From positions 1 to 47,733 of the forward strand of contig JAFZWF010000020.1 of NCBI GenBank assembly GCA_017617435.1: 47,733 nucleotides of DNA, read 5' to 3'. Below the pieces are notes generated by a model. The model was not told the origin of the DNA and did not search any database. It worked only from the letters and a program-made list of their open reading frames with translations. Below, in pieces: positions 19,185 through 47,733 of the stretch. Positions within the stretch are counted from its first letter, which is position 1, and every line of letters starts with the position of its first letter. The DNA comes from Bacilli bacterium (GTDB lineage Bacteria > Bacillota_I > Bacilli_A > RF39 > UBA660). The translations under genes and the position numbers were made by a program.

Positions 19185-19439
19185 ATGAAGGATATAATTA
19201 TGCTTTGTTTTTGTCTTTCATTGTTCCTATTAACCATAGGAATTTTTTGCATTTCCAGGTACATAAATTTATTTAATTTTTACAAAGATTCGAGGTTATT
19301 AATAAAACCACATAAACACTATTATCCAAGGTGGTTTTACCGAGATACGGGTCAAGGTAATAAGTTTAACTACTATTTAAAATATACACACAACACTACT
19401 ATAAAAAACGAACTAGGAAGTATGAGGTACGCAGTATGA
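19185..19439 (+). CDS. Small membrane protein coupled to the giant dockerin protein
   Basis: Function unknown. The 84-residue product has one strongly hydrophobic N-terminal helix (IIMLCFCLSLFLLTIGIFCI) and a basic, aromatic tail with HKHYYPRWFYRDTGQGNKF. The ATG at 19185 follows AGGATG; an in-frame GTG at 19164 would add seven residues without a clear ribosome site. Its TGA stop overlaps the start of the giant gene in ATGA, so ribosomes finishing here can restart on the giant. That coupling suggests a role in expression, export or anchoring of the giant, but this is inference. The TGA is the only TGA stop among the annotated intact genes here. The upstream promoter is strong. Confidence 0.65.
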   Translation: MKDIIMLCFCLSLFLLTIGIFCISRYINLFNFYKDSRLLIKPHKHYYPRWFYRDTGQGNKFNYYLKYTHNTTIKNELGSMRYAV

Positions 19440-34400: not shown

Positions 34401-37400
34401 TATTTAAAGATCAATATTTAAATAATGCTCAATCTATTGAGTTATATGATTCTGATGAAACAACATTAATTAGTACAGTAAATATTAGCTTCATTCATGA
34501 AGCAAATAAATACTTAGTAAATGGAAGTTTACAAGATGTTGGTTCTTACATAACAATTTATGGTGATACATATGCTAAAGCATATGAAACTAATGTAACT
34601 AAGAATGTTGCTGGTTATAAAGAACCAAGTGATAGTACATTTACTGGTTACTTCACTGCAGCAAATGGCGGAACAAAAGTTGATGTAAATAATATTACCG
34701 AAGATGACAACATAGTATCTGCTTTATATGCTCACTATGTTGAAGAAACACCAAACGGCTACGTTAGAGTCGATTTTGATGGAGAAATTACTAATGTTCC
34801 TCAAGGATCATATATAACTCTTCCATTAAATAAAACTAAAGATTCAACAAGCTTTAATGTTAGATTCAATTTTAATAGAACTAACATTGAACCATATGTT
34901 GCAACTATTACAACTGAATATACTTTAGATAGTTATTTAGTAAATAATAGAGTTTATAATCCTGGAACTTCAGTACAAGCTAATAGTGATTTAGTAATTA
35001 GATCACATTACTCTGAGTCAAAAGACTGGGATGATGATACTAAGAATATATTAAATGCAACATACCCTGATTTCCCTACATTTGATGTTTTAGACGAAGT
35101 TCCTACATCATGGGTAATTGATCTAACAAATGGAACAACTATAGATGATGCATCAACTCTTAATAAATCAACAGAGTTATATGCTCACTATACACAATTT
35201 GCAAATGTTTACTTAAATGATGAAATTATTGCTCAAGTTAAGAAGGGTACAACATATACACTTCCAATTAATAATCTTCCTAAAAATTCAGATATTATTG
35301 GAACAGTAACATTTGTTTATAATAATGGTTCAGATGATACTACAAGTAACGTATACAAATACTACTCAGCAAGTGGTTGGTACATTGGTGAATCTGAATA
35401 TGTATCTGGTGCAAAGGTAACTGTTAATGAAGACATTACACTAGTTCCAAGATATAAAGAAACTGTTGTTAAAGCTGTATTCCCTAAAACTCCTGTTAAA
35501 GAACACTCAACATTCAATGGATGGTTCACATCACTTGATGAAAATGGTGAACAATTAACAGAATATAGTAGTGAAGGAAATATTGCTTTATATGGTAAGT
35601 GGACTGACAAAGTTAAGATTGTTGATCCAACAACTGGTGAAACAGAATATGTTGATCCAGGAACTGTAATAACTCTTGAGTCTCTTGATGATAAAGAAGA
35701 AAAGTTCTATAACATCACATTTGATTACAATTATGAAGGTGCTCCTTCAAACAAAGTTGTAAGAATATCAACTCAAGAAGTATTTAAAGGTTGGTTAATA
35801 AATGGTGTTTTACATCAAGCTGGTGAAGAAATTACAGTTGATGAAGACATTACTAAATCAGCTTCTTACGAAAAAGTTATTAATAATAAGAACTTACCAA
35901 ATGATCCAACTAGAACTGGTTATACATTTACTGGTTGGTATACATCTACTTCTGAATTATTCGGAAGTCTAGTTGATATAACTAAGATTGAATCAACTAC
36001 AACCGTATACGCCCATTGGGAAAACTTTGATCCTGAAACACAAGTAAAACTTACTTGGGATGGCGTTACATCCGTTCATGATAAAGGTGAAGTTATAAGT
36101 CTTGAAAAAGAAGGCACAACTCAAACTTCTACAATAGCAAATGTAACTTTCGTAATGAACAAAGAAGGCTATAGTGATAAGATTGTTAAGATAACTAATA
36201 CAACATTTGTTGATCATTTAATAATAAATGGAAATGATCATGCTGCAAATGGAACTTATACATTAAATGCGGATACTGTTATTACATCAGTATATGATGA
36301 AGAAACTAATTATCCTGCACTTCCTGTTATTTCAAGTGATGAATTTGAAGGATTCTATACAGCACCAACAAATGGTGAAATAGTTACAACGCTTCAAGGT
36401 GTAGCTGAAGATGTTACATATTATGCTAGATGGGGAGAGCCTGGTGGAGGAACTGTACCAGCAATAATTGATGGAGAAGAGATAGAAATCGATAATCCAT
36501 ATACTGTTCCAACAATGTATGGTGATGAGGAATCAATCACTGTTTACCTAGATTTAAATTATGATGAAGCTCCAGCTCCAACAGCAATGACAATCACATC
36601 ACAAAAGAAAGTTTTAAGTCAAAATATAAATGGTATTACATATTATCCAGGTGATGTTGTAGTTCTTCCAAAAAATAGTGTAATTACAACTAACTTATCT
36701 AATGAATATGAAACAACTACAAGTCCTGAATATCAAAAACCAAGTGATATTACATATGATGGTTCAACATATACATTCAATTACTGGACTGATGAAGATG
36801 GAAATGTAGTTGCATTAAGTAACTTAACTGGTATGGACTCAGCATATGACGGATCAACATTATATGCAAATTATCAGTACAAATATGATGATTACTTGAT
36901 CTTACATGTAATAGATGGAAGTTACGAAGAATATGTTCAAATAGAGCCAGATTCTTACGTATATCTTCCTAATTATGCAAATCAAGCAAACTCATCATCA
37001 ATTTACTTATATGTTGACGATTATGTATTAGGCGGATATGCAGATATTATAATTAGTCAAGACTATGAACTTAAAGAAACCATATTAAATGGTAAGAAGG
37101 TAAATAACTACTATTCGTTCTATATTGATGAAGATACAACAGTTAAATTTACATATTCTTTAAGTGATGTAAGTCGAGAAATCGACTATGAGTCTAAAGA
37201 CTTCTCTTACTTATTAGAAAAACCTCCAGTTCAAGTTGATGAATATAATATTTATACTGGATTAAATACAAATAGTGATGGTAGTGGAGAAACAGTTGAT
37301 ATCTTAACACTTACTCCATCTGATGATACATATGATGGTATATCCCTATATGTTATGTATGATGAAGGTGGATCAGTTAATACTACACTTACAATAGATG

Positions 37401-40400
37401 GAGAAGTATCAATAGTTCCAGTAGGTAACATTACATTACCTGATGCTAAGACTAAAGCAAGTGATACATTTAAAATTACTTACGATTATAATGATGGAAC
37501 TTCGAATAAATATACTCAAACAGTTAGTAGATCTTATGAGTTTGCTCATTATAAATTAAATGATGAAAATGCATCTCAAACAGAATATGCTGCTGGAAGT
37601 ACATTTAATATTACAAAACCATCTGAATTTAATAGTGTATTTAATATAACTTACAACTATCCAACAATGCATACATTAACAACAGAAGGATTCTTAGGTT
37701 GGTACACTGATAAAACTGGTGGAACAAAAGTAACAAATTTAAATAATATAACTGAAGAAACCACACTATATGCTAGATGGGATGATACAGTTTATTACAC
37801 AGTTCCTGAAGTTGCAGGTGAAGTCGGAAGTATTCAAATCTACTTCGATTACAACTACGAAGGTGCTCCAGCACCAATACCTGTTACAGTAACAAGCCAA
37901 AAAGAAGTTTTATATCAAACTATTAATGGCGTAGTTCATTATCCAGGAGAATTAATTAAACGAGATGGAGAACTTGATATTAGAACTGTTTATAGTGATG
38001 ATATTAGAACCACATTCTCACCAGATATTCCAGAACCGGAAGATAGAGATGAATATTTCTTCACTGAATGGATGATACTTGATGACCTTGAGTGGGACGA
38101 TGGGGATACCATTGATAACCACTTAATAAGTTTCTTCTTCTATGATATAAATGGATTTAACGAAAAATATGATGGTAAAACATTGTATGCATATTGGACT
38201 TATCACTATTATAGTGATCCAGAAGAAAGAGTTAAATTAAAGATTGATTTCCCTGGTTATTACTTCTACTATGAAGAATACGGCCGTGGTGATAGTTTAT
38301 CTTATGATTATTTCACAAGTGATCCGTTCTCTTCTTGGATTTACTTAGATTTATATGATGAAGATGATAATTATTATTATCTAAATTATGCAACTCCAAT
38401 GCTTCTTGATAAGATTATCCATGATGGTAAAACAGTAGACTTACATGATTCATTTATTGCAGAAGAGGATGGAACAATTTCATATTATTATGATATTGAT
38501 CCAGATGAAGAAACAATAATTGATGGTAGTTATCCGGATTACTTATTAGAAGAACCACCATATGAACATGATGGTAAAACATACGTAGGTGTATTTGATT
38601 CAACAGATGAAGATGCAAAACAAATAGATATAATAAATTTAAAAGGTACTGATGTTCAATATAGTAATAAAACATACTTTATTAGAAATATTGATGGTAT
38701 TGAAGAATACACATATTTATACCTAGATGATAATCCTGCTGTTCAAATTCCACTTGGAGATTGGACATTACCTGCGGCTACAACTAAGGATAGCAAAGAC
38801 TTCTTTGTAACATTTGATTACAATGATGGTTCAGGTAGAACTGCTAAACAAGCAATAACTCAAAACTATACTTTTGATCATTTCCACATTAATGGAACTG
38901 ATGAAGATTTACCTGCGCAAAGTCCTTACAATGTAACTACAGCAATTAGGATGAACAGTGTATTTACTAGCTCTTATAGTTATCCAACAATACTTGTAAA
39001 TACTAATAAGGTATTTGATGGATGGTACACTGAAAGAAACGGTGGAACTAAAGTAACAACTCTTCAAGGTATAACAGAAGCAACAACACTTTATGCTCAC
39101 TATAATGGAGATCCTAATGGATCAGCAATGACATTCGATGGTCAAGTATATGTTGTACCTGATGATGTTGATAGAATTAACCCACTTAACGATGGTTACG
39201 CAGCAAATCAAATTATTAAAAAAGCTGTCTTAACATTAGTTCTGGGTGAAAACAATAGTGAAACTCATACATTTAACACTGTAATCGATCACATTGGATG
39301 GACCGATGAAAACGGTGTTGAGTATGGTGAAATCATTGACTTAGCCGACGAAAATATCGGAAGTACATTTACATCTCGCTATAGTTATGACAATGTTGAA
39401 GATATTGATTTAAGTAGATATAACCCAGATGATAATACATTTAAGGGTTGGTTCACACAAGCAGAAGATGGAGAAAAAGTTACTATTTACTCTCCAGTTG
39501 AAGATGAAACATATTACGCACAATATTATGATGAACCTCAAGTAATAATTACTGTTGATGGAGAAGTTGAGTTATATCCTGTTGGATCTACTTATACTTT
39601 ACCTGATGCTAAGACTAAGACTGGTCCAAGCATTGTAATTACATTCGACCACCAAGATGGTAATGATACAACTACTACTAAATCATTTGATACTATTTAC
39701 ACATTCAGTGGTTATAGACTAGAGGCTGATCAAACATTATATGGTGCTAACTATTCATTTGATGATATTCAAAATGATATGACATTTACTTCAACATTTG
39801 CTAAATCACAAACAACACCTACATGGCCAGATGATCCAACTAAAGAACATTACTTCTTCTTAGGTTGGTTTACAGCTCCAGATTCAGGCTTACAAGTATT
39901 TAACTATGATGATATTTCAACAAACACTACTTTATATGCTCAGTATGTAAAAAATGCTGATGACTTCGTAACTATTACAAATAGTGCAACCGGAGAATCA
40001 ATTAGAGTTCTAACTGGAAGTGACTTCGTATATAGTGAAACTAAGTTCTATAAAGTAGATGAAGAAAAACTTGGTAAGGTAACATTTAAATTTAACTCGC
40101 CTGGTTATCCAGATGAAGAAGTTGAATTTAAAATCAAACATACTCCAAGTGGATTCTACGTAGGTGATGATACTGAAAACTTGATTGGTGTTAATACAGC
40201 ATATCAATTTAATGCTGATACAACTATTACGCCATACTATGACGAAGCTAATGATGTATACGATGGTACAATCGGAACAAGCATATTTGATTACGATATA
40301 ACTAAAGATGATGCTGAGGCAACATGCTTTAGTAAGACAAATCAAACTGATCCTCGTGATAACACAGCCTACACATGTTATACCGAATATGATAAAAACG

Positions 40401-42292
40401 ATGGAGATATAACACTATACTTACACTGGGCTCCAGTAAAAGCTATAAATGTTACTAAACCAGATGGTACTGTTGAAGTTCATAATATATACGACACTAT
40501 TGATCTTGGTGTAAACGATATCGATGGTGAAGATGATATTACCTATACAGTTAACCTAATTTATCATGACGGAGAAACCCAAGATGGCACTGTAACATAT
40601 TCTAAAATCTATTCAAATAATGGTTGGTTAATAACAACTGAAAATGGTGAAAATCATTACGATGATAATGCATCATATGAACTTATTGAAGATGTTGTAA
40701 TCAAACCAGATTACACTGTAACTGAAACAACAGCTACACTTCCAACTCCAACAAGAGATGATTACACATTCATGGGATGGAATAAACTTGAAAATGGTCT
40801 TGGTAAGTACTATAAAGATAGCGACATAAATGGTGCTAAATCCTCTGGAGAACTTACACTTCATGCTGTATGGTCTCATGAACAAACTGTAACTATTTCA
40901 TTCGACTCTCAAGGTGGTACTCCAGTTAATGACTATGTAAGAGTTTATGGAGAAGCAATTGGTGAATTACCTGAAACTCAAAGAGATAACTTTATCTTTA
41001 GAGGTTGGTACACTGATACAACATTTACAACTGAAGTTACTCCACAAACTATTGCGAAATATGACTCAACATATTATGCATTGTGGACTGAAGATATAAC
41101 TCCAGGCCCTGGACAAATTTCTGTTACATATCCAGATGGTTATGTTGATATTATTTCAATTGGATCTGCTGTATGGCTTCCAGATGAAAGTTACTACGTT
41201 GATAAACCAGACTTAAAAGTCGCAACTATCACATTCAAGTATCAAGATGAAGAAACAGATGATGCTTATGCATATGTTTACAAAACTTATACTCAAAGTG
41301 GATGGAAAGTAACAGGCGATGAATCTGGTACAACTATCTATGAACCAGATAGAGACATTTATCCAGAAGAAAACATCTATATCCAATATAATTACATCGA
41401 AACTACAATTGCAGATGACTTCCCTGATGATCCAACAAGAGATGATTACAACTTTGATGGATGGTTTGATATAGATGGAACAGAATATACAAGTTACCTT
41501 GGCGAAGATGATTTAACTCTTTATGCTAACTGGTCACTTGCTGGACCAACAGATATAAGTGTTGAATCTAATGCTTTAATCCTTGTTAAAGGTGAGGAAA
41601 AACAAATTGAAGTAATTACAACTCCTGCAAACTTAGAAAATGTTGAATATACGTATACAGTTGCAGAGGGAGGTAATGAAATTGTTACCGTATCTGATGA
41701 TGGTTTAATAACTGCCATTGGTGCTGGTACAACAACAGTTGAAATAGCTGTTAAAAATAATCCATCTGTTACAACTACAATTTCTGTTACTGTTTATAAT
41801 AATAGAATTACGTCACAAACACTTGATGTTGAAAATAGAGATTTAACAGGTGAAGATATCAGAATCATTATTGGTGCAGAACCTGAAACTATGGTTGAAG
41901 ACTTCTTAACTAATATTGATAATGAACTTGAATTCATCGAAGTTTATAACAAAGATGATGAATTAATTAGCCCAGATGATTATGCAGATGTATTAATTAC
42001 AACTGGAGCTAAATTAAAGCTTGTAATAAACGGAACTACTCATGATGAAGTTATCGTTATTATAAGAGGAGATATAAGTCAAGATGGATATGTTGACGTA
42101 CGTGACCAAGTATCTCAGCAAAAACACATTCTTGGATCTGAACTTATTACAGGTTACCAAGTATATGCAGCTGATTTATTTGAAGATAATGAAGCAACAA
42201 TTGATGATGTTATCGATGTTCGTGATAATGCACTTCTTGATAAATATATCTTAGGAAAAACAATAAGTTTAAACGAAAAGGAGGGTGATTAA
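19436..42292 (+). CDS. Giant secreted multi-repeat protein with a C-terminal dockerin-like domain (7,618 residues)
   Basis: This is a secreted surface or matrix protein of very roughly 0.85 MDa. A Sec signal peptide is clear (basic start, LLVIFAAFLVCF core, cleavage expected after AYA at residue 26). After a Tyr-rich N-terminal region, about 36 InlB/Flg_new-type units follow, recognised by FxGW[FY]xxxxGG and a closing LYAxW. Each is preceded by a longer beta segment with YPDG, ATVTFxYxDG and NGWxIDGxHY elements, giving about 100-120 residues per full unit. Seven copies of a separate module of about 250 residues interrupt the first half. The second half is B-repeat-like only and very acidic. 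The end has a Big_2-like domain (about 7370-7457) and two dockerin-like repeats (about 7545-7607). There is no LPxTG or enzymatic domain. Starts at the ATGA overlap. Adhesion or scaffold function is likely but unproven. Confidence 0.9.
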   Translation: MKKSKLFKILLVIFAAFLVCFTNAYAEGEGEGEETPKTGWTKSADYCYDHPERVLTVHYIVDGKEVNPNDPNAGNWYSISGSKKNPCTIYYIPESYYNYNTGFGSSQKMFTNEDGTLGVIYWYNNPELEGNPVFYLYPDNDPDNNDIYLYAKTGKIIEVYANGYKKKVVVGKTYSPATMEPDYDVEEGVTHDYSGKSVNYWNYSTEADYFSYTTDYAENNSNSTYTYYRDKTYTTGRSTILPAKAQYLHVDNTQLVQFINYESCRGNDNYLYCDIANPDTGEAMTSKEVQEMLNDEYAYNTVYIHDYKRIPKYYKYFGFIDTEGREYPQDFVMQEEYAGRAFTTVVDGRMSCATNSISPYSSSSYVAKVYNTTINFQGAEYSGDFNTNYLTKLKTYYGNEYYPDNKTNYYYSTCVPYDVNYKYTYTFSNPNIRRYTVVIEGTEGVKVNQNSVYKLPSQGKPKSSDVKVVTLKYQDGETPDERLTYTRTYTPSGFKIDGVHYDFGQEIVVTRDLYITYDYTSEVTGPDLPTPERELFNFKGWYDATIGGHIITDPKELQASVLYAQWGSVDKVTIVRPDGIPIELEKGSSYTMPNISDKDEVVNSSVSFNYNDRSGRTDVSKVITYYKKNGIKDKLTGEIYAEGETIIANHNMVLTENYIVTRVPATFPKTPTRNNYEFVGWFDAVEGGNEYTEYSGDQDLSLFARWEGDIEQVTIYFPDGFYVTIDKGESYTLPRIDSINDKYKVTFKYQDDVTADKEQYVIHSYLSNGWIIDGDRYAAGEVITPMEDVYLIEDFVETYSYPTFEEVADREWYTFEGWYDAAEGGNKVTSYEELEPATFYAQWEEIPSKDIVLEEVPAKTGGIVASVTFYPNNGDSTVVSYVSKTYEPNGWIVDGVHYNVGDTVTITRTSTITPDYVESTSEASFPDRPSKSGYTFQGWFNKESGGNRYTSYRGTSDLTLYGHWAPEGEPPVFLCRRAKTLHEDYSYPYDTYGSLGTDGSLQTGDAFDCDVNGDGYYDSYDERFYYLSDYYDTHTKTFNPTYATLVHSENDEYQQYARSVSYNGPTEVTQGQYSSKLPKTTEWTNVTLYQTERAILNADGTNSNTGGTYPDNFSYTGYAARMITAQEISSGCNITIKNNGGITGSISSKCDFLQENMFSDWETRDLRWWLENPTASTNYKALLYDGYGVVTDDVSVSSMEFDDSGRRNDLKVAIDVPKEAMEIDFSPLYYTLTFPDYTEKVVEGSSFVVPANNYEREDEEVTIIYKYQDGVTPDKEVIIPKHFQTWGWTGSYYEGETITVNSDITFTPDYHTSIDDFERAKPVNREGYEFEGWFTQAQGGAKYRIDLYDNTKTNINQIVLYAHWHQIDDTVPVEGLLCRRAETLHFQLCQTSQYCQYYMTNGGLTFGRLGESGLLSDGDAFDCDVNGDGVYDADNERFYYVSDYYDTATKTFDPDWAVLIYYNNYGPNGADATQATKYTTASTAINGPEQAITYLPTTDEWPNVTLKETTRRIWGESGYGDVVAGYPYNNPTTFYPTEFSYEGKAARLLTSRELYAAMAQDYFQQYSKYQSFINSNRVRMENSQYMNSSYAYGYWLENPVPYVSNKSAVFVTNDRATDAQISLNKGVRPAIDVPKSKIEIQYLDAYNIYVDGVKMGSKRPGETYTTPSVDPKEGEAIATVTLVYQDGATENQVIDLSKEYLANGYTFNNNHYDARADIVVNSDLYLVSDYVEVYTPADLPTPTKQFVNFVGWFDAAEGGNQYSISDIDSDITLYAHWDAPVGPTVLPTNDTPKEGGTYTVTFDPQNEGPQTTSTVTISYTPNGWLVDGEHYDDGAEVTLTENSVVIEDYIVTSTPAVFPDNPTKENAIFSGWYDAPVGGNKYTSYEEPADITLYANYYSAPVGPDQNNILCIKASSLHSEPCAQRTGKTDTCTGLGWSTNQNVVFGQRPTDGELKPGDAFDCDVNGDGVFNSTNERFYYVTDYYDTYTGEFDTSYATLIYYNDTENGVSSIGYNSNYSDEDANYKGPKVAYLHLPSTSQWSNVTLKDTTRQMRGEYGSLHNQLINYSNIPYETFEYTDRAARLLTLQEVMRACEIDEARTSTNYDNLNQKCLFLYENTAFTTNNSGNGYTRTWLETPTNGYNQYFDNTANAIWSLNNGGRQVQIGSPSGTSRGIRPAIDVPKDRIDITISNTHSVTLPDRVDTVDHGAEYTIPDNKYPKASETVATITLKYQDTVTPNSTLDVIQSYTPNGFTIGETHYNERSLITVNEDITLVPSYVETITPVTLPTPTNTGYTFAGWYDQPGGTGTRYTTYSVAEDIILYAYWTLTPPTDGEEYTLPANTEKDNGPVSTVTFVYNDGSTANTTSFVTASFEPNGWLVDGVHYNVGDVINYEEGMEIVQDYIPSVTNPAVFPNNPVRNGYTFIGWFDTNSSAGGQRYTTYSGTKDLTLYARWLDNSGGILPQSDIKCKRATTLHTAYCPDNVQWCNDSGNAGEYITFGNISDSTELVTGDALDCDVNGDGTFDDETERFYYVSDYYDTNTMSFNGLYASLIWYDDYPYSTDTHQIRYIHWDDDFTSSYIGPTGPINATLNGNRLLPLSTDWTNVSLYTNERAILPALENISNPTIVDYSGLSGRLLNYKEVEQACGINVTSNQIYELPENCSFLWENAIQDRYYEMASGPYWLENPGDSTNAIAMETGYIKFFGTKYEDYEERNSRPVIDVAKVNIEGLEVSNIHTVTYPDGSTERVLHGGTFIFPENTSTKNTENVATVTFNYMDTSSTVEERYVTKSFVANGWKVNNTHYDNGASFIVNSDITLEYDYVSTIHGAEFVDDPIDYHNAFMGWFDSVSDGTKYTSYDGEEDLILWAHWEDAETLLSGYTCRRASTLHTGKCIDRQYAECSEMGVENNTKLEFGNIGISGELHTGDAFDCDVNGDGTFDSKKERFYYVSDYYNTETGEFEDDTAALIWYTVIPFKDGVSDIPSITFTSVAYDVDSSSELGINRYGPRHSYLALPSTTEWSNVSLKNTQRQIRASYEDTLSSKKLSNGTSLSKFTYTGRAARYLTIEEAAAACDVTQIISTYDFARIPYLQHFPLKCSYLREGTRVGNGGGLVNGFWLESVKYNSTYNAWYSDGSAIYDREASFTSMSVKPVIDMPKDKLEIVHIPMASVYIDGTKVTTFIAGNEYTIPQVPNKTSVKFATVQFEQQNGNGRITKQINTTYIPVGFTVGDETYQPGQVITVDEDLYLVSNYTEGIEYPTFPDDPEKPGYTFVGWFDTTDPGGGNEYKVPEDFATVTKNQTLRIYARYDDGTVTETNTITYPDGRVDVVKHNSYYTMPRTTHTAYSEKVGTAVFKYYNGHPDTESDVIKTYTPDGWRINGHKYNAGNSLYVSSDLVVNYNYAETYHTDFPTPDPTYEGQTFYGWSDMDYGGSFRTESTVYGDIVLYAVYYANLPNYGDTFIVPPNTIRTPKQYVVHFDPQNGDPVTTSYVYIEQIPDGWLAAGRHVYPGDEIIWQGGGLTEVYNNGEVTPAEFPSTPTKAGYEFTGWYDQPAGGNRYTTYSRDRNITLYAHWYDPNGGGTTEEPLCTVADYIDDESESYATIGEAGTLVPGNAYDCVINTNGDTGRFYYVSDYYDTHTKEFDDTYQTFIYSGNYYFGEELNITDNTYVETNYASNAYNGPTSQLNHLPSKNDWNNISLYQSQRQILTPAGETTLGGYNLPNFDYGDSPSRLLTVQEVNRACNITISSTSYTDLPYSCRFLSMNLDNLSIEGAEGYGYYLENPTTTSEAGFIFMTNTYNSRNNYSEQVLARPAIDVPKSRIEGFTSSVTTYTVTYPNGYKETVEPGTVIIIPENNQVNNNIEGATVTFKLGNGQSDIVKHVTNSAIGSGYKIDGVHYNSNSLYTVNSDITLEYDYVVTAVGAAEFPADPVRNDYTFAGWFADDLDGSRYFNYSGYDDITLYAHWDDNMPSYICKRATELHTITCDSTNSYCNDHDVDSITYGQLGIDGVLTAGDAFDCDVNGDGIYDPDTERFYYVSDYYDTYNDDFNTHYGVLIYSNNTISGVPSTGGANYNTDGLNIESINTSNFPTSSQWSNVSLYDTYRIVPSINNSDREIDYENAVARYLRLEEVERACGTHSNQEGYLDNCLFLLEDTNYKQDEQDEQNHVIWDRDDYTSVYLENSYLGDDGNVYTLNSYTRNVALKYSSYYGVIKPTIELPKEEIEISVPNVYSVYIDNTKVKDVVDGKNYILPNNESVNSENIATITFKYNDGITSDVTRTVTKSYEGNGYTLGDEHYNAGDVIVVNEDKYLTSNYIETVSSPTFPANPTRTGYEFVGWITTENYEPWNIYPIVSSYDGSENITLYAQWRPSQGAGDCYIQYMDTGEIEIYTCNETLTVPNKVAYESETLTFNYLNTNNENTSFDATYNSYQSVVKYTDQNNREYTPGETITVNGKVYLRRTYSDISYDDTLFTTPNDAYRFIGWFTLENGGTQVNNYTEYKESGSTTSNVYGHYNEEGKCTVVLDGEEVGTYDCGSSYTLPAGSNVDEDIATVTFIDGESTTTSKVHATKTFSNYSVKVGLNGTATTNNASENVTVSDNTYITSNYTNVTITPVTISNLADKDYYSFEGWYTRANGEGVKVTGSYSNAVDITLYSYYVAKKAQYSFYDAINESNIGYMEATYGTRIDTSSIRANESGISEHEIRYVYNNGTNDFVDRSFAISNEIVSWTQETTNKPYALIHTVDVVGPISLNAVFGDGKVATNITLETLSADTYPGYDFAGWYTLPVGGKLVSASDIREDKDYTFYAHWTRNNTNICTLNDGTTMECPEGESLVVPAYSESIVGRVNEIINGTSDQYKDEMLESYEVVKTSYIDYAEVDGVKYYPGDTYTIGVNPEITIVYKSSVTTPVTLDTNIDVDSDWFNEDDDMIFVGWFTERTGGTQLFKYDGEETINVYARYKVYDPDEETYTLYIEGLDGNVISQENISKGTKIKLFKDQYLNNAQSIELYDSDETTLISTVNISFIHEANKYLVNGSLQDVGSYITIYGDTYAKAYETNVTKNVAGYKEPSDSTFTGYFTAANGGTKVDVNNITEDDNIVSALYAHYVEETPNGYVRVDFDGEITNVPQGSYITLPLNKTKDSTSFNVRFNFNRTNIEPYVATITTEYTLDSYLVNNRVYNPGTSVQANSDLVIRSHYSESKDWDDDTKNILNATYPDFPTFDVLDEVPTSWVIDLTNGTTIDDASTLNKSTELYAHYTQFANVYLNDEIIAQVKKGTTYTLPINNLPKNSDIIGTVTFVYNNGSDDTTSNVYKYYSASGWYIGESEYVSGAKVTVNEDITLVPRYKETVVKAVFPKTPVKEHSTFNGWFTSLDENGEQLTEYSSEGNIALYGKWTDKVKIVDPTTGETEYVDPGTVITLESLDDKEEKFYNITFDYNYEGAPSNKVVRISTQEVFKGWLINGVLHQAGEEITVDEDITKSASYEKVINNKNLPNDPTRTGYTFTGWYTSTSELFGSLVDITKIESTTTVYAHWENFDPETQVKLTWDGVTSVHDKGEVISLEKEGTTQTSTIANVTFVMNKEGYSDKIVKITNTTFVDHLIINGNDHAANGTYTLNADTVITSVYDEETNYPALPVISSDEFEGFYTAPTNGEIVTTLQGVAEDVTYYARWGEPGGGTVPAIIDGEEIEIDNPYTVPTMYGDEESITVYLDLNYDEAPAPTAMTITSQKKVLSQNINGITYYPGDVVVLPKNSVITTNLSNEYETTTSPEYQKPSDITYDGSTYTFNYWTDEDGNVVALSNLTGMDSAYDGSTLYANYQYKYDDYLILHVIDGSYEEYVQIEPDSYVYLPNYANQANSSSIYLYVDDYVLGGYADIIISQDYELKETILNGKKVNNYYSFYIDEDTTVKFTYSLSDVSREIDYESKDFSYLLEKPPVQVDEYNIYTGLNTNSDGSGETVDILTLTPSDDTYDGISLYVMYDEGGSVNTTLTIDGEVSIVPVGNITLPDAKTKASDTFKITYDYNDGTSNKYTQTVSRSYEFAHYKLNDENASQTEYAAGSTFNITKPSEFNSVFNITYNYPTMHTLTTEGFLGWYTDKTGGTKVTNLNNITEETTLYARWDDTVYYTVPEVAGEVGSIQIYFDYNYEGAPAPIPVTVTSQKEVLYQTINGVVHYPGELIKRDGELDIRTVYSDDIRTTFSPDIPEPEDRDEYFFTEWMILDDLEWDDGDTIDNHLISFFFYDINGFNEKYDGKTLYAYWTYHYYSDPEERVKLKIDFPGYYFYYEEYGRGDSLSYDYFTSDPFSSWIYLDLYDEDDNYYYLNYATPMLLDKIIHDGKTVDLHDSFIAEEDGTISYYYDIDPDEETIIDGSYPDYLLEEPPYEHDGKTYVGVFDSTDEDAKQIDIINLKGTDVQYSNKTYFIRNIDGIEEYTYLYLDDNPAVQIPLGDWTLPAATTKDSKDFFVTFDYNDGSGRTAKQAITQNYTFDHFHINGTDEDLPAQSPYNVTTAIRMNSVFTSSYSYPTILVNTNKVFDGWYTERNGGTKVTTLQGITEATTLYAHYNGDPNGSAMTFDGQVYVVPDDVDRINPLNDGYAANQIIKKAVLTLVLGENNSETHTFNTVIDHIGWTDENGVEYGEIIDLADENIGSTFTSRYSYDNVEDIDLSRYNPDDNTFKGWFTQAEDGEKVTIYSPVEDETYYAQYYDEPQVIITVDGEVELYPVGSTYTLPDAKTKTGPSIVITFDHQDGNDTTTTKSFDTIYTFSGYRLEADQTLYGANYSFDDIQNDMTFTSTFAKSQTTPTWPDDPTKEHYFFLGWFTAPDSGLQVFNYDDISTNTTLYAQYVKNADDFVTITNSATGESIRVLTGSDFVYSETKFYKVDEEKLGKVTFKFNSPGYPDEEVEFKIKHTPSGFYVGDDTENLIGVNTAYQFNADTTITPYYDEANDVYDGTIGTSIFDYDITKDDAEATCFSKTNQTDPRDNTAYTCYTEYDKNDGDITLYLHWAPVKAINVTKPDGTVEVHNIYDTIDLGVNDIDGEDDITYTVNLIYHDGETQDGTVTYSKIYSNNGWLITTENGENHYDDNASYELIEDVVIKPDYTVTETTATLPTPTRDDYTFMGWNKLENGLGKYYKDSDINGAKSSGELTLHAVWSHEQTVTISFDSQGGTPVNDYVRVYGEAIGELPETQRDNFIFRGWYTDTTFTTEVTPQTIAKYDSTYYALWTEDITPGPGQISVTYPDGYVDIISIGSAVWLPDESYYVDKPDLKVATITFKYQDEETDDAYAYVYKTYTQSGWKVTGDESGTTIYEPDRDIYPEENIYIQYNYIETTIADDFPDDPTRDDYNFDGWFDIDGTEYTSYLGEDDLTLYANWSLAGPTDISVESNALILVKGEEKQIEVITTPANLENVEYTYTVAEGGNEIVTVSDDGLITAIGAGTTTVEIAVKNNPSVTTTISVTVYNNRITSQTLDVENRDLTGEDIRIIIGAEPETMVEDFLTNIDNELEFIEVYNKDDELISPDDYADVLITTGAKLKLVINGTTHDEVIVIIRGDISQDGYVDVRDQVSQQKHILGSELITGYQVYAADLFEDNEATIDDVIDVRDNALLDKYILGKTISLNEKEGD
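20990..22330 (+). repeat. First block of InlB-type B-repeat units
   Basis: Four consecutive units end in FKGWYDATIGG, FVGWFDAVEGG, FEGWYDAAEGG and FQGWFNKESGG, each followed by a LYAQW-like close. They share the pre-repeat pattern PDG, then TxPxI/N, then VTFxYxD. Similarity is at protein level; the DNA has diverged. Confidence 0.85.
22352..32100 (+). repeat. Seven copies of a Cys-containing module with a DxDxNGDG loop
   Basis: Copies lie at about 22352-23106, 23564-24357, 25163-25996, 26831-27618, 28072-28920, 30179-30893 and 31337-32100. Each begins CxRAxxLH, continues with GDAFDCDVNGDGxxD and ERFYYVSDYYD, then LPxTxxWxNVxL, an ARLLTxxEV segment, a Cys-FLxEN segment and WLENP, and closes RPAIDVPKxxIE. 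The WLENP...RPA end resembles the WLRSP...RPAL pattern of DUF6273-type proteins. The DCDVNGDG loop resembles calcium-binding loops. One to three B-repeat units follow each copy. Copy six has lost the loop. Confidence 0.85.
36448..39110 (+). repeat. Two tandem copies of a 432-residue super-repeat
   Basis: Three degenerate B-repeat-like units occur twice in the same order with an offset of 1,296 bases between equivalent codons. Shared landmarks are YxxAPAPxxxTxTSQKxVL, LLExPPxxxDxxxYxG and LPxAxTKxSxxFxxTxDYND. The GW core is eroded in several of these units (YW, EW). Confidence 0.75.
41542..41807 (+). other. Big_2-like bacterial Ig domain near the end of the giant protein
   Basis: The segment from ISVESNALILVKGEEKQIEV through TTPANLENVEYTY and VSDDGLITAIGAGTTTVEIA has the classical Big_2 pattern. 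It separates the B-repeat array from the dockerin region. Confidence 0.85.
42068..42258 (+). other. Type I dockerin-like domain of the giant protein
   Basis: Two tandem calcium-loop and helix repeats are visible: GDISQDGYVDVRDQVSQQKH then ILG, and ADLFEDNEATIDDVIDVRDN then KYILG. The spacing and the closing hILG fit type I dockerins. The preceding 70 residues (LTNIDNELEFIEVYNKDDEL, then GAKLKLVINGTTHDE) match the small domain that often precedes such dockerins. Confidence 0.82.
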
Positions 42293-42294
42293 TT

Positions 42295-45200
42295 GTGAAA
42301 AAGTATTTTAAATATCTATTATTAGTTATTTCAGCAGTTTTAACTTTTGAAATATCAACTAATATTGCTTACGCAGATACTGCACATAAGTTATCACTTA
42401 GAGCTTATAACTGTAATAAACTAAACTCTAGTTCACAGTGTGTTGATGATAATAATACTGTTATTACACCACAAGCTCTTACAAACAATTCACAAATAGA
42501 TGTTGGTAAAATAATAAAACTTGAAATTTATTATGAAGCAGGCTCTCCTGAGATCGTATCAATGCAATTAGGTATTGATTATGATCCAAATAAGTTTGAA
42601 CCAGTACATAAAAATAATGCATTACTTACTCAAGTAAAAAGAAAAACGACATTAGACGGAGGAGTATGGCCACCATCGCCATCCTCCGATCCTGATGATC
42701 CGTATACTGATTGGACAGTTCAATCAAATGATTATGTCAATGTAACTTCAAATCAGTATCAACTTAGATTCTTAATTAAGGACCCAACACTTGAAACAAC
42801 ATTCTCCGGTTCTGGAGTTCTTGTAACAACATATGTTAAGGTTAAGGAAGATATAACACCAGGAGATGATTTAACTTTAAATTATAATAATTCTTATACC
42901 AAATTAACAACATATGATTTGGATCTAGTTCAAAGAACGTTAAGTGGTATAAATTTAAAAGTATATAAAGAACTTGATACAGATCCAACACTTTCAAGCA
43001 TAACTGTAACAAGTGGTGGAACAAATTATCTAACAAGTTTTAATAAAAATACTAAAACATACAATGTTTACGTTCCAAATGCTGTAAGTAGTGTAGTAAT
43101 TACTGGTGAGCCAACAAAATCAAGCACAGTACTTACTTATAGTCCATCAGCAACAAATAATAGTTATGGTTTAACTGTTAGTACAACTAAAACTGTAACT
43201 ATTTCAACAGTTGCTGAAGATGGCCAACACACTGATACATATACTGTTAAAGTATATAGATTAGATAATACTAATACTTTAAGCAGTTTATCGTTGAGTG
43301 GTGTAAGTTTTGGAACATTTAGTCCAAGTACAACTACTTATAATGCAACAAGCGCAGTTCCATATGCAACAAGTGCAACTACTGTAACTGCATCTGCAAC
43401 AAGTGGTAAAGCAACTCTTAATCCAACAAGCGGATCAAGCGTTGGTTTAAATGTTGGAAGTAATGCTGTTCAAATAGTAGTTACTCCAGAGTGTGCAAAG
43501 AGCACATATTCATCTGTTCCAAATAATGGAACTAGCGTATGTCAAACAAAAACATATACTGTTAACGTAACTAGAACAGCTGCATCTACAAATAACTACT
43601 TAAGTAGTTTAACTGTAAACGGAACATCTGTTCCTAATTTCCAAAAAACAAATGAAGGACCTTATAATGTAACAATAGGTTATGGTGATAGTCCAGCTAT
43701 TATAGCTGCTACTCCTGAAGATACAGATCATGCTGTTGTATCTGGTCAAATAGGTTCACAAGCAGTTAATGTTGGTGATACAACATTAACAATTACTGTT
43801 ACACCTGAAGATCCTGATACAAATCCAAGAAACTATACTGTAAAAATTCATAGAAAGAGTAATAATGCTAACTTAGCAAGTTTAAGTGTAACATCTAGTC
43901 CTCAAGGAACGATGAATCCAACATCATTTACTGCTGGAACTACAAGTTATACTTATACAGTTGGTCCTGATGTAACTGAAGTTACTGTTAATGCAACACC
44001 AGTTAGTGGTGCAACAGTATCTTATAGTCCTACATCAGCAAATAATAAATATAATCCAAATAATACTTCTAAGGTAGAAATTACTGTTACTCCTGAAGAC
44101 ACAGATCAATCTACAAAGAAATATACTGTTAATTTAGCAAGAACTAAATCAACAGATGTATCTTTAAATAGTTTAACAGTTACAAATGGTACACTTTCAC
44201 CATCATATAGTGATAGTGTTGATTCCTATAATATGGTAGTAGCTCCTAGTGTAACAAGTATTACAGTTACACCTGATCCAAAAGATTCAAGAACTACTGC
44301 AACTGTAACCGGAAATACTAATTTAAAAACTGGTGATAATACCGTAACAGTTACGGTTACTCCTGAAGCAGGTGAAACTGCAAAAAGAACTATTACTATT
44401 AACGTTAAAAGATTAAGTGATGATGCAACACTTTCTGCTTTATCATTAAGTGGTGTATCAATTGGTGAATTTAAACCAGGAACAACAACTTATACAGCAA
44501 CTGCTGTTCCATATTCAAAATCAACAACGAATATTACAGCTACTGCAACTGCAGGAAATAGTGTTGTTAACTCTATAACAGGTACAGGAAATAATAAAGC
44601 AATTAATGTTGGTGATAATACATTTAACATTGTTGTAAGCCCTGAAAACTGTAAGAGTACATATAGTTCTGTTCCAAATAATACATGTACTACTAAAACA
44701 TATACTGTTAATGTACATAGAAATAATAATAATGCTACATTAACTGGTATTGAAGTTAAAAATGGAACAACAACTTATGACTTAGATCCAGCATTTACTG
44801 ATGATTCTAAGAACTATATTGTTAAAGTTCCATATAATATTCAAACAGTTACAGTTACACCAACTAAAGCTGATACTAATGCAAGTGCAGTTGTTGCAAA
44901 TGCATCAAGTAATTTAAGTGTTGGTGATAATAACAGAAATATTACTGTTACTCCAGAAGATGCAACTGCAACTGGTAAAACATATAACTTAACTGTTAGA
45001 AGATTAAATAATGATGTAACGCTTTCATCATTAACAGTTAATGGTTCATCTATTTCAGGATTTGCTGCAAATAAGACAAGTTATGAAATAACTGTTCCTT
45101 ATGCAACTGATAAAGTTACAATTACTGGTGCACCTCATGATCCAAATGGTGAGGTAACAGGTAATGTTACAAATCAAGCTATTAGTGTTGGTGAAAATAC

Positions 45201-47733
45201 GATAACACTTACATCTAAAGCTGAAGATAGAACTATTACACAGCCAATTACTATAAAAGTAACAAGAACAGCAGCATCAACTAATGCTGATCTAGAATAC
45301 TTAAAAGTAGATGGTGAGTTAATTGAAGGTTTTGGAGCTAATAATATAAATTATAATATTTCAGTTCCATCAACAACATCTAGCGTTACTATTACTGCTA
45401 AAGCAGCTGATACTAAAGCTAAATCAGTTGTCATAACAAATAGTGGTAATATTTCACTAAATCTTGCTCAAACATCAACTGCTACAGTTGTTGTAACAGC
45501 TGAAAGTGGAGCAACTAAGACATATACTGTTAATGTATATAGAAAAAATAATGTAAATACCTTAACTGGTATTGAAGTTAAAAATGGAACAACTACTTAT
45601 GACTTAGATCCAGCATTTACCGATGATTCTAAGAATTATGTTGTAAGAGTTCCATATGATGTAGAAAATGTAACTATTACTCCAGCAAAAACTGATAGCA
45701 AATCAACTGCAACAGTTGCAAATGCATCAAGTAATTTAAGTGTTGGAAATAATAATAGAAACATTTCAGTTAAAGCAGAAGATACTGCCTTAACTGCTAG
45801 AGTTTATAACTTAACTGTTAGAAGATTAAATAACGATGTTACACTATCTTCATTAACATTTAATGGCTCATCTATTTCAGGATTTGCTGCAAATAAAACA
45901 AGTTATAATGTAACAATTCCATATACAACTGATAAAGTTACAATTTCAGCTGCACCTCATGATTCAAACGGACTAGTAACAGGTGCTGTTACAAATGAAT
46001 CTGTTGAAGCTGGTGGATCTAGAACATTTACTTTAACAGTTGCTGCTGAAGATAGAACAAAAACTCAAGATATAACTATTACAGTTAATAGAGTTGCTGC
46101 ATCAACTACAGCATCCTTAACAGATTTAACAATTGATAATGTAACTGTTCAAGGATTTGACCCAGCAGTATTTGATTATAATGTTGTAATGGGTTCAAAT
46201 ATTGAAAATATTACAATTGGTGCATCTGTAAGTGAAAATGCAACAATATCAAGTACTAGTGATATCGGATCAAAAGCTATCACAACTGGAGTTAATGATT
46301 TTGAAGTTGTTGCTATAGCTCAAGATGGATCAACAAGATTCCCATATGAACTACATGTTAAGAGATTAAATAGTAATAATAACTTAACAGGATTAACAAT
46401 ATCTGGTGATCCAAACGGAGAGTTAAGTTCAGCATTTAGTGCAAACACTACTGAATATACTTATACTGTAGGTCCTGATATAACAGAAGTTACAATAAAT
46501 GCAACTGGTGCAACTGGAACTACTGTTACTTATAGTCCTACATCAACAAATAATAAATATGATCCAAATACAACATCAAGTGTAACAATTACTGTTAGCC
46601 CTGAAAGTTGTAAGAGTGAGTATAGCGGTGTTCCAAATAATACATGTACTCCAAAAACTTATACTGTTAACTTAGTTAGAACAGAATCAAATATTAATAC
46701 ACTTTCTGGTATAACATATAATGGTACACCAATATCTGGATTTAATCCTACAACAACAAGTTATACTGTTGATGTTCCATATGATACTCCAACAATGACT
46801 GTTGCTGCTACACCTAGTGATGGTGATAGAGAAACAGTTACTGTTACACCTCCACAAACTTATGGAGTAGGTGATAACGTATATACAATCGCTGTTGAAG
46901 CTGAAGATGGTACACCAAATACTTATACAGTTACTGTTCATAGACAAAGTAATAATGCTAACCTTTCTGGTTTAACACTTGATAACGTTACATTAAACGA
47001 AGACTTTGATCCAAATACAACAGAGTATACTGCAACCGTTCCATATACAACTACTACTACTAATGTAAATGCAACTTTAGCAGATACTTCACTTGATCCT
47101 GATAATAATGTTGTAATAACTGGAGATACAAATCTTTCAGTTGGTAATAGTAATATCTTTACAATTACTGTTACTCCAGAAGATGCAAATGAACCAAGTA
47201 AAACTTATACAGTTACTGTAACAAGAGAAGCTGCTTCAACTGAAGCATACTTAACTGGTATTACAGTTAATAATGTTGCTATTGAAGGATTTGATAAAGA
47301 TATAACTTCATATACCGTTGATGTTTCAAATAGCATAACTGAAGCTAACATTGTTGGTACAGCTAATACTAATTCAACAGTTCAAGGTAATGGTAATAAG
47401 ACAGGACTTGTAGTTGGTGATAACGGACCATATACAATTACTGCTGTTGCTCAGGATGGACTTCCAGAACATTCTAAATCATATACAGTTACTATTCATC
47501 GTAAAGATACAAATAATAACTTAAGTGGTTTAACAATAACTGCTGATCCAGCTGGATCTTTAGATACACCATTTGATCCAGATACAACTGAATATACTTA
47601 TACTGTTGGACCTGATACTCCATCAATTACTGTTACTGGTACTCCTGATGGTAATGCTCAAGTTACTGGTGATGGAACATTTGATCCAACAACAACAGAT
47701 AAAATAGAAGTTGTTGTAACTCCAGAAGAAGGA
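42295..47733 (+). CDS. Giant secreted protein with cohesin-like N-terminus and cadherin-like repeats (partial, runs off the window)
   Basis: A GTG start, with AGGAGGGTGAT upstream and only two bases after the stop of the giant dockerin gene, opens a frame that stays open to the window end (1,813 codons). A signal peptide is evident (LLLVISAVLTF core, cleavage expected after AYA at residue 27). Residues about 65-215 look like a cohesin: IDVGKIIKLEIYYEAG, then VSMQLGIDYDPNKFEPV, then SGSGVLVTTYVKVKEDI. From about residue 232 there are at least 17 repeats of 80-100 residues with the cadherin-like beta-sandwich pattern (LSSLTVNG, F-P-TxYxVxVPY, TVTPED, KTYTVxVxR). The last is cut by the window edge. 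It very likely shares the operon of its neighbour. The C-terminus, and so any anchor, is unseen. Confidence 0.88.
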   Translation, partial: MKKYFKYLLLVISAVLTFEISTNIAYADTAHKLSLRAYNCNKLNSSSQCVDDNNTVITPQALTNNSQIDVGKIIKLEIYYEAGSPEIVSMQLGIDYDPNKFEPVHKNNALLTQVKRKTTLDGGVWPPSPSSDPDDPYTDWTVQSNDYVNVTSNQYQLRFLIKDPTLETTFSGSGVLVTTYVKVKEDITPGDDLTLNYNNSYTKLTTYDLDLVQRTLSGINLKVYKELDTDPTLSSITVTSGGTNYLTSFNKNTKTYNVYVPNAVSSVVITGEPTKSSTVLTYSPSATNNSYGLTVSTTKTVTISTVAEDGQHTDTYTVKVYRLDNTNTLSSLSLSGVSFGTFSPSTTTYNATSAVPYATSATTVTASATSGKATLNPTSGSSVGLNVGSNAVQIVVTPECAKSTYSSVPNNGTSVCQTKTYTVNVTRTAASTNNYLSSLTVNGTSVPNFQKTNEGPYNVTIGYGDSPAIIAATPEDTDHAVVSGQIGSQAVNVGDTTLTITVTPEDPDTNPRNYTVKIHRKSNNANLASLSVTSSPQGTMNPTSFTAGTTSYTYTVGPDVTEVTVNATPVSGATVSYSPTSANNKYNPNNTSKVEITVTPEDTDQSTKKYTVNLARTKSTDVSLNSLTVTNGTLSPSYSDSVDSYNMVVAPSVTSITVTPDPKDSRTTATVTGNTNLKTGDNTVTVTVTPEAGETAKRTITINVKRLSDDATLSALSLSGVSIGEFKPGTTTYTATAVPYSKSTTNITATATAGNSVVNSITGTGNNKAINVGDNTFNIVVSPENCKSTYSSVPNNTCTTKTYTVNVHRNNNNATLTGIEVKNGTTTYDLDPAFTDDSKNYIVKVPYNIQTVTVTPTKADTNASAVVANASSNLSVGDNNRNITVTPEDATATGKTYNLTVRRLNNDVTLSSLTVNGSSISGFAANKTSYEITVPYATDKVTITGAPHDPNGEVTGNVTNQAISVGENTITLTSKAEDRTITQPITIKVTRTAASTNADLEYLKVDGELIEGFGANNINYNISVPSTTSSVTITAKAADTKAKSVVITNSGNISLNLAQTSTATVVVTAESGATKTYTVNVYRKNNVNTLTGIEVKNGTTTYDLDPAFTDDSKNYVVRVPYDVENVTITPAKTDSKSTATVANASSNLSVGNNNRNISVKAEDTALTARVYNLTVRRLNNDVTLSSLTFNGSSISGFAANKTSYNVTIPYTTDKVTISAAPHDSNGLVTGAVTNESVEAGGSRTFTLTVAAEDRTKTQDITITVNRVAASTTASLTDLTIDNVTVQGFDPAVFDYNVVMGSNIENITIGASVSENATISSTSDIGSKAITTGVNDFEVVAIAQDGSTRFPYELHVKRLNSNNNLTGLTISGDPNGELSSAFSANTTEYTYTVGPDITEVTINATGATGTTVTYSPTSTNNKYDPNTTSSVTITVSPESCKSEYSGVPNNTCTPKTYTVNLVRTESNINTLSGITYNGTPISGFNPTTTSYTVDVPYDTPTMTVAATPSDGDRETVTVTPPQTYGVGDNVYTIAVEAEDGTPNTYTVTVHRQSNNANLSGLTLDNVTLNEDFDPNTTEYTATVPYTTTTTNVNATLADTSLDPDNNVVITGDTNLSVGNSNIFTITVTPEDANEPSKTYTVTVTREAASTEAYLTGITVNNVAIEGFDKDITSYTVDVSNSITEANIVGTANTNSTVQGNGNKTGLVVGDNGPYTITAVAQDGLPEHSKSYTVTIHRKDTNNNLSGLTITADPAGSLDTPFDPDTTEYTYTVGPDTPSITVTGTPDGNAQVTGDGTFDPTTTDKIEVVVTPEEG
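42494..42950 (+). other. Cohesin-like domain
   Basis: The pattern DVGKIIKLEIYYE ... MQLGIDYDPNKFEPV ... GVLVTTYVKVKEDITPGDDL fits the nine-strand cohesin/carbohydrate-binding superfamily fold: a GD-like first strand, an LxYDP motif, and a late G-L-x-x-x-x-x-VK strand. An unusual Pro/Asp-rich insert (WPPSPSSDPDDPYTDW) lies in the middle. Assignment is by eye. Confidence 0.6.
42989..47733 (+). repeat. Array of at least 17 cadherin-like beta-sandwich repeats
   Basis: Units start near LSSxxVxG and end near YTVxVxR. Units 7-9 and 10-12 are a recent three-unit duplication with an offset of 822 bases. Three units carry an insert of the type ENCKSTYSSVPNNTC. The array continues past the window. Confidence 0.85.
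44740..46130 (+). repeat. Tandem duplication of a three-repeat block (822-base period)
   Basis: TTAACTGGTATTGAAGTTAA occurs at both 44740 and 45562, followed by almost identical DNA coding GIEVKNGTTTYDLDPAFTDD. The following NDVTLSSL and AASTxAxL units are also duplicated in order. The near identity at DNA level marks it as recent, in contrast to the older repeats around it. Confidence 0.85.

What the first reader, a model, noticed from the sequence alone, without database searches (positions are those of the whole stretch)
42068..42950. Neighbouring dockerin and cohesin on two giant secreted proteins
The sequence shows a dockerin-like C-terminus on the 7,618-residue protein and, two bases after its stop, a new secreted protein with a cohesin-like N-terminal domain. 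Cohesin-dockerin pairs are known to build cellulosomes and related assemblies. Here neither partner shows a glycoside hydrolase, so the pair may build a non-catalytic matrix, sheath or adhesin fibre of very large dimensions. The translational spacing suggests coordinated synthesis.
Basis: partly seen in the sequence, partly recalled or inferred. Interest (0 to 1): 0.85.

Follow-up and report, generated by a model that had tools for sequence, protein, structure and literature searches.

The report
Anchored giant-protein chain, cohesin-dockerin linked
Uncultured gut bacteria of the class Bacilli carry a gene row in which each giant surface protein ends in a plug (dockerin) and the next protein in the row begins with a socket (cohesin), the last one sitting in the membrane, so they probably build a very long, enzyme-free surface fibre in gene order with joints known until now mainly from cellulose-digesting machines.

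Summary
The 7,618-residue protein (A) ends in an X-module/dockerin; two bases later starts a secreted protein (B) with an N-terminal cohesin. Pfam gives Cohesin 25.9 bits (cut-off 24.1) but Dockerin_1 only 20.1 (cut-off 22.9); a dockerin profile from relatives gives 33.7 bits, and predicted folds match solved cohesins (Z 15.7) and dockerins (Z 11.1). The window cuts the system short. Its last 130 bases equal the start of another contig, where B ends in a second dockerin, followed by two proteins (C, D) with N-terminal cohesin and a membrane helix. A–B–C recurs in relatives; all 14 complete C genes with upstream sequence follow a dockerin-ending gene. Each dockerin carries the same two-residue code in both repeats (A VR/VR, B LF/LF, a third one SA/SA), different between dockerins of one genome: separate specificities. 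No glycoside hydrolase and no multi-cohesin scaffoldin was found. Most likely A docks on B and B on C/D: an enzyme-free surface fibre assembled in gene order. The logic resembles the anchored ScaA–ScaB–ScaC chain of Acetivibrio, but with one cohesin per subunit. Binding itself is inferred, not shown.

The parts
19436..42292 (+). Gene A: 7,618-aa secreted protein with signal peptide, InlB B-type (Flg_new) repeats, seven DUF6273-like units with a CDVNGDG-like loop, Big_2, X-module, dockerin; no LPXTG at its C-terminus, no membrane helix apart from the signal peptide
41549..41779 (+). Big_2 domain preceding the X-dockerin of A
   Evidence: Pfam Big_2 36.7 bits; also in gene A of relatives
41801..42061 (+). 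X-module of A, next to the dockerin (beta-grasp-like in the model)
   Evidence: alignment A3, AF2 model, weak structural matches ThiS Z 5.4 and X-Doc 4wkz Z 6.7
42068..42262 (+). Dockerin A: repeats at 42071-42136 and 42191-42256, recognition dipeptide Val-Arg in both
42277..42284 (+). Shine-Dalgarno sequence AAAGGAGG of gene B inside the end of gene A
42295..47733 (+). Gene B, first 1,813 aa (2,503 aa when joined with contig C5)
42295..42372 (+). Signal peptide of B
   Evidence: sequence
42385..42963 (+). Cohesin of B (Pfam match 42481-42879)
42991..47733 (+). Array of cadherin-like beta-sandwich repeats of B (17 in the window, more in contig C5)
   Evidence: PF12733
47604..47733 (+). 130 bases identical to the end of contig C5 (reverse strand): the place where B goes on outside the window, to dockerin B (recognition dipeptide LF/LF) and the membrane-anchored cohesin genes C (694 aa) and D (572 aa)

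Best explanation
The window holds the outer part of a three-tier, non-enzymatic surface chain. Gene A makes a giant secreted rod of InlB-type repeats ending in X-dockerin A. A's dockerin is held by the N-terminal cohesin of B, made by the next gene; B is a second long rod of cadherin-like repeats that ends in X-dockerin B. B's dockerin is held by the N-terminal cohesin of C or its paralogue D, which carry a short cadherin-like stalk, one membrane helix and a cytoplasmic tail. Gene order equals order of assembly, A to B to C, outside to inside, and the joints are kept apart by different recognition residues (VR in A, LF in B; SA in a third dockerin of the same cell). The likely use is a very long surface fibre or adhesin, anchored without sortase or S-layer domains. 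Shown: architecture, conservation, fold, co-occurrence, distinct symmetric codes. Inferred: that adjacent partners bind, the polarity, the fibre, and adhesion.
For: Fold: cohesin B (pLDDT 91.7) and dockerin A match solved cohesins and dockerins. Continuation: exact unique 130-bp overlap gives B a C-terminal dockerin and puts C and D behind it; dockerin B 50.8 bits, cohesin C 99.2, cohesin D 55.2 with the local profiles (dockerin B and cohesin C were among the seeds of those profiles). Conservation: A-B-C present in L038, L039, L112, L115, L116 and, with named MAG records, L130, L131, L133, L134, L137 (partly the same genomes); A-B in L117 and L132. Gene C, found by its tail and not by any dockerin, is preceded by a dockerin-ending gene in 14 of 14 complete cases. 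A-type X-dockerin and B-type cohesin co-occur: 10 of 12 and 10 of 12 in 386 genomes, Fisher p 2e-16. Types stay separate in leave-one-out profiles: dockerins A 10/10, B 18/19, G 25/25; cohesins B 18/18, C 18/18, G 25/25 (core only). Residues 10-11 of the dockerin repeats are the most symmetric within a protein (z 11.7 and 14.6), differ between proteins, and in the window's genome read VR, LF, SA. A and B have no LPXTG at the C-terminus and no membrane helix beyond the signal peptide; C and D have one.
Against: Cohesin-like folds also occur in adhesins without dockerin binding (PrgB Z 12.6, antigen I/II Z 12.3). Dockerin A scores under Pfam's cut-off and its second calcium loop is degenerate. 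Distance correlations between partners order as predicted (docA-cohB 0.24 against docA-cohC 0.08; docB-cohC 0.41 against docB-cohB 0.33) but are weak with 8 genomes; mutual information was inconclusive. Two B genomes lack a strong A match (G208, G269), one A genome lacks a detected B (G095), and A is not next to the B found in G102 and G225. The B-C link in the window's genome rests on an assembly overlap.
Confidence: 0.72

Rival explanations
1. The joints are real but promiscuous or wired otherwise: dockerin A docks on C, D or the C20 anchor directly, and the cohesin of B receives other dockerin proteins, so there is no fixed A-B-C chain.
For: Partner choice is inferred from gene neighbourhood and co-occurrence only; in two relatives A is not next to B. 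In Acetivibrio ScaA can dock on ScaD directly or on ScaB, and cohesin type does not fix the partner (PMC3413522).
Against: A, B and G dockerins and B, C and G cohesins form separate types with different recognition dipeptides in one genome; A and B co-occur in the same few genomes.
Confidence: 0.15
2. The cohesin-like and dockerin-like domains are only structural end caps of giant adhesins and no longer bind each other.
For: Cohesin-like Ig folds occur in PrgB and antigen I/II and in TMEM132 (PMC6030884, title and abstract seen); dockerin A has a degenerate second loop and a sub-cut-off Pfam score.
Against: The recognition positions are the most symmetric in the dockerin repeats, which a vestige would not be expected to keep; dockerin-cohesin gene neighbourhood is tight and one-sided.
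Confidence: 0.1
3. A cellulosome-like enzyme complex (for plant fibre or mucin) whose enzymes lie in the unassembled part of the genome.
For: The assembly is only 71% complete; many named relatives are MAGs from ruminant guts; dockerin-bearing C1 peptidases exist in relatives.
Against: Only three dockerin proteins and four cohesins were found here, each cohesin on its own protein, none with a Pfam glycoside hydrolase.
Confidence: 0.03

Closest known systems
Acetivibrio cellulolyticus ScaA-ScaB-ScaC scaffoldin cluster (PMC3413522)
   Same: Clustered genes; an X-dockerin of one scaffoldin docks on the next one, whose dockerin docks on an anchoring cohesin protein; the links use different specificities set by dockerin recognition residues
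   Different: There 7, 4 and 3 cohesins per scaffoldin, carrying up to 84 dockerin proteins such as enzymes, anchored by SLH; here one cohesin per protein, no glycoside hydrolase found, giant repeat rods, single membrane helix as anchor
Single-cohesin anchors with a C-terminal TM helix ('nonSLH-anchoring scaffoldins', PMC11557425)
   Same: Cohesin plus C-terminal transmembrane helix, like C and D
   Different: That survey kept only genomes with a dockerin-bearing GH and a multi-cohesin protein, so a genome like this one would not have been scored
ANME dockerin/cohesin proteins (PMC9012536) and an Omnitrophota giant ORF with nine dockerins (PMC10066038)
   Same: Non-cellulosomal use, cell-surface or adhesive role proposed
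   Different: No conserved gene-order chain of single cohesin and dockerin rods is described in the passages read
Clostridium perfringens NagJ-NagH cohesin-dockerin (PDB 2ozn)
   Same: Secreted non-cellulosomal proteins joined by a cohesin-dockerin pair
   Different: The partners there are glycoside hydrolases (general knowledge); the cohesin and dockerin sequences differ
Limousia mucinolysome (PMC12997984)
   Same: Cohesin-dockerin assembly in gut bacteria, inferred largely from MAGs
   Different: A multi-enzyme complex for mucin degradation; no such enzymes are seen here

Membership tests
Cohesin (PF00963) | profile match over the curated cut-off | tested here: met
   25.9 bits against 24.1
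Cohesin (PF00963) | cohesin beta-sandwich fold | tested here: met
   AF2 pLDDT 91.7; the 27 best matches are cohesins, Z 12.9-15.7; PrgB follows at 12.6
Cohesin (PF00963) | binds a dockerin | not testable with these tools
   no complex prediction or assay
Dockerin type I (PF00404) | two F-hand repeats with calcium loops | tested here: met
   two repeats, first loop canonical, second degenerate; 1ohz_B rmsd 0.9 A over 56 residues, 8x39_A Z 11.1
Dockerin type I (PF00404) | profile match over the curated cut-off | tested here: inconclusive
   20.1 bits against 22.9 with Pfam; 33.7 bits, E 9.4e-10 with a profile of family dockerins; dockerin B is over the Pfam cut-off, 26.9 bits
Dockerin type I (PF00404) | binds a cohesin, calcium-dependent | not testable with these tools
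   inferred from symmetric recognition dipeptides
Cellulosome | scaffoldin with two or more cohesins | tested here: not met
   four cohesins found, each alone on its protein; assembly 71% complete
Cellulosome | dockerin-bearing glycoside hydrolases | tested here: not met
   three dockerin proteins found, none with a Pfam glycoside hydrolase; assembly incomplete
Sca-type anchored scaffoldin chain | dockerin of one member, cohesin on the next, anchor last, genes clustered | tested here: met
   A-B-C in the window with contig C5 and in relatives; binding not tested
Sortase-anchored surface protein | C-terminal LPXTG, helix, basic tail | tested here: not met
   A and B end in dockerins; no LPXTG at the C-termini of A-D, although the genome has sortases

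The most novel reading that the evidence does not exclude
A whole family of uncultured gut Bacilli uses neighbouring dockerin and cohesin genes as a general address system that is not built around glycoside hydrolases: each secreted protein (giant fibre, SH3-domain protein, papain-like peptidase) carries a dockerin with its own symmetric two-residue code, and the next gene supplies the matching socket on a membrane anchor. Its extreme form is the A-B-C chain, a fibre of about ten thousand residues assembled in gene order.
Probability: 0.55. Interest if true: 0.85.

Novelty: new variant of a known kind. Interest (0 to 1): 0.74.

Why it matters
Cohesin-dockerin joints are among the strongest protein links known (general knowledge) and have mostly been read as enzyme scaffolding. 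Here they seem to build the surface of genome-reduced, uncultured gut bacteria that spend 30 kb or more of a roughly 1-Mb genome on one fibre. Gene order would predict which partner binds which, giving many new orthogonal pairs (VR, LF, SA, AL, IL and others) that can be tested at once and used in protein engineering, and a handle on how these bacteria attach in the gut.

Tried and rejected
Complex prediction of A and B: the tool predicts one chain and takes only unchanged sequences; no fusion was tried. Inter-protein mutual information on 42 G pairs, 18 B-C pairs and both together: dockerin positions 10, 11, 15, 17 and 18 rank high against shuffled pairing in the G pairs, but phylogeny was not controlled, so inconclusive. 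Distance-matrix correlation with 8 operons: expected order, too weak. Direct PDB sequence search with cohesin B found nothing useful; the fold search did. Cellulosome rejected: no multi-cohesin protein, no dockerin-GH. Sortase anchoring of A or B rejected: sortases exist but A and B have no signal for them. X-module fold: only weak matches, left open. Literature: no hit for cohesin, dockerin and RF39 together; Peer et al. 2009 is not held. The GTDB family was not identified; named relatives are MAGs labelled Bacilli, Bacillota/Firmicutes and other names, many from ruminant guts.

Full report
What was checked. The window is one contig (C9) of a 927-kb, 71%-complete assembly, G000. Gene A runs 19436-42292 (7,618 aa) and gene B starts at GTG 42295 and is open at the window end. 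The two-base gap is real, with a Shine-Dalgarno sequence inside A's last codons and no terminator-like site.

The domains. Pfam finds Cohesin in B over its cut-off (25.9 bits against 24.1) and Dockerin_1 in A under its cut-off (20.1 against 22.9). I built a dockerin profile from 43 dockerins of the family that lie next to a cohesin gene; A was not among them. It scores A's C-terminus at 33.7 bits, E 9.4e-10. AlphaFold2 with alignments of relatives gives cohesin B at pLDDT 91.7 and X-dockerin A at 85.3. The 27 nearest solved structures of the first are cohesins (6kgc_A Z 15.7, rmsd 2.6 A, 143 residues); those of the second are dockerins (8x39_A Z 11.1; 1ohz_B rmsd 0.9 A over 56 residues). The piece before dockerin A is an X-module that also precedes dockerin B. 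So both domains are real, by sequence, fold and homology.

The rest of the system. The last 130 bases of the window are identical to the end of contig C5 (reverse strand) and occur once in each sequence compared. Joined there, B has 2,503 aa: cohesin, cadherin-like array, X-dockerin. It is followed by C (694 aa) and D (572 aa), each with a signal peptide, an N-terminal cohesin, cadherin-like repeats, one membrane helix and a cytoplasmic tail. A third couplet of the genome lies on C20: an SH3_3 protein ending in a dockerin (58.3 bits), then a cohesin (36.0 bits with the local profile), cadherin-like and membrane-helix protein.

Relatives. In 243 genomes of the same family Cohesin matches in 120 and Dockerin_1 in 183. 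Among the matches listed, 48 dockerins in 46 genomes have a cohesin 104-164 bp downstream on the same strand; there is no case on the opposite strand within 3 kb. In 43 loci that I read, the dockerin ends 3-12 residues before the stop and the cohesin follows the signal peptide of the next gene; the genes overlap slightly or lie at most 25 bases apart. Most of the dockerin proteins examined carry SH3_3 domains; in L045 and L051 a papain-like peptidase is docked the same way.

The A-B-C operon proper is rarer: B-type cohesins occur in 12 of 386 genomes at E <= 1e-5. A-B-C is intact in L038, L039, L112, L115 and L116, and A-B in L117. In L038 and L039 A consists of a glycine-rich domain, 21-34 cadherin-like repeats, Big_2, X and dockerin, so the outer part differs from the window's InlB-type repeats while the Big_2-X-dockerin end is kept. 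A scan of GTDB genomes with the gene C alignment found 22 loci, many of them gut MAGs named Bacilli bacterium. In every locus with a complete C and upstream sequence (14 of 14) the gene before C ends in a dockerin. This was not built into the search.

Co-occurrence. A profile of A-type X-dockerins gives strong matches (at least 150 bits) in 12 of 386 genomes, 10 of them among the 12 with a B-type cohesin (Fisher p 2e-16). In G102 and G225 A is in the genome but not next to the B found; in G042 A and B sit on contigs that share an exact 141-bp end, so they are probably adjacent; in G305 A is followed by a B-like gene whose cohesin the profile missed.

Specificity. In leave-one-out profile tests dockerins fall to their own type in 53 of 54 cases (A 10/10, B 18/19, G 25/25; with core domains only 52 of 54) and cohesins in 61 of 61. 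In 72 dockerins I compared the two repeats position by position. Positions 10 and 11, known recognition positions in type I dockerins (general knowledge; position 11 is discussed in PMC3413522), are the most symmetric of all against shuffling (z 11.7 and 14.6). The dipeptide is the same in both repeats in 8 of 10 A, 18 of 19 B and 31 of 43 G dockerins, against shuffled means of 1.1, 1.8 and 6.7. In the window's genome the codes are VR/VR (A), LF/LF (B) and SA/SA (C20). That is what working dockerins with dual binding mode and separate partners would look like; a vestige would not be expected to keep it. Which cohesin residues read the code I could not resolve.

Mechanism. The simplest reading is an anchored chain: A docks by its C-terminus on B's N-terminus, B by its C-terminus on C or D, and these sit in the membrane. 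Only C and D have a membrane helix; A and B have none beyond the signal peptide and no sortase signal at their C-termini, though sortases are encoded. The result would be a rod of about 10,000 residues with an InlB-type repeat head. That it is an adhesin or fibre is inference from the repeats and the lack of enzymes.

Comparison. The logic is close to the ScaA-ScaB-ScaC cluster of Acetivibrio cellulolyticus (PMC3413522). Differences: one cohesin per protein, so the chain cannot branch; no glycoside hydrolase; giant repeat rods; a membrane helix instead of SLH. It is not a cellulosome by its defining features as far as the incomplete genome shows. A 2024 survey of cellulosomes required a dockerin-GH and a multi-cohesin protein (PMC11557425), a filter this genome would not pass. 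Non-cellulosomal cohesins and dockerins as such are known (PMC9012536; PMC10066038).

Limits. Binding was not tested, and no complex model could be made. The C9-C5 join rests on assembly overlap plus the gene order of relatives. The genome is incomplete, so absence of enzymes is provisional. The lists of matches are truncated, so counts are lower bounds.

Noticed in passing
L007:6273-9229 (contig C20 of the same genome): SH3_3 protein ending in a dockerin (code SA/SA) directly followed by a cohesin, cadherin-like, membrane-helix protein; the same couplet occurs in dozens of genomes of the family.
   Followed up: partly
L006:10008-12092 and gene C of relatives: Conserved cytoplasmic tail motif YDDVVTKDELVDAI..KLKMLL.QEE.N, repeated up to three times in L038, L039 and L112; function unknown.
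   Followed up: no
window 22460-31500: Seven DUF6273-like units in A, most with a CDVNGDG calcium-loop-like motif (aa 1009 to 4015).
   Followed up: no
L045:997-7237 and L051:2057-7821: Papain-like C1 peptidase with C-terminal dockerin (in L045 with Flg_new repeats, in L051 with Big_2), directly followed by a cohesin gene.
   Followed up: no
L155 end and L114 start (G042 contigs C2 and C7): Exact 141-bp overlap joins a giant A (7,120-aa open frame) to B; a terminator-like hairpin lies between them.
   Followed up: partly
G215 contigs C22 (1152, 10328) and C24 (172): Three A-type X-dockerin matches with identical scores and an in-frame TAA in the frame; possible duplicates or broken copies.
   Followed up: no
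window 122-1144: Pilin-like protein: N-terminal methylation motif plus an InlB-type (Flg_new) repeat.
   Followed up: no
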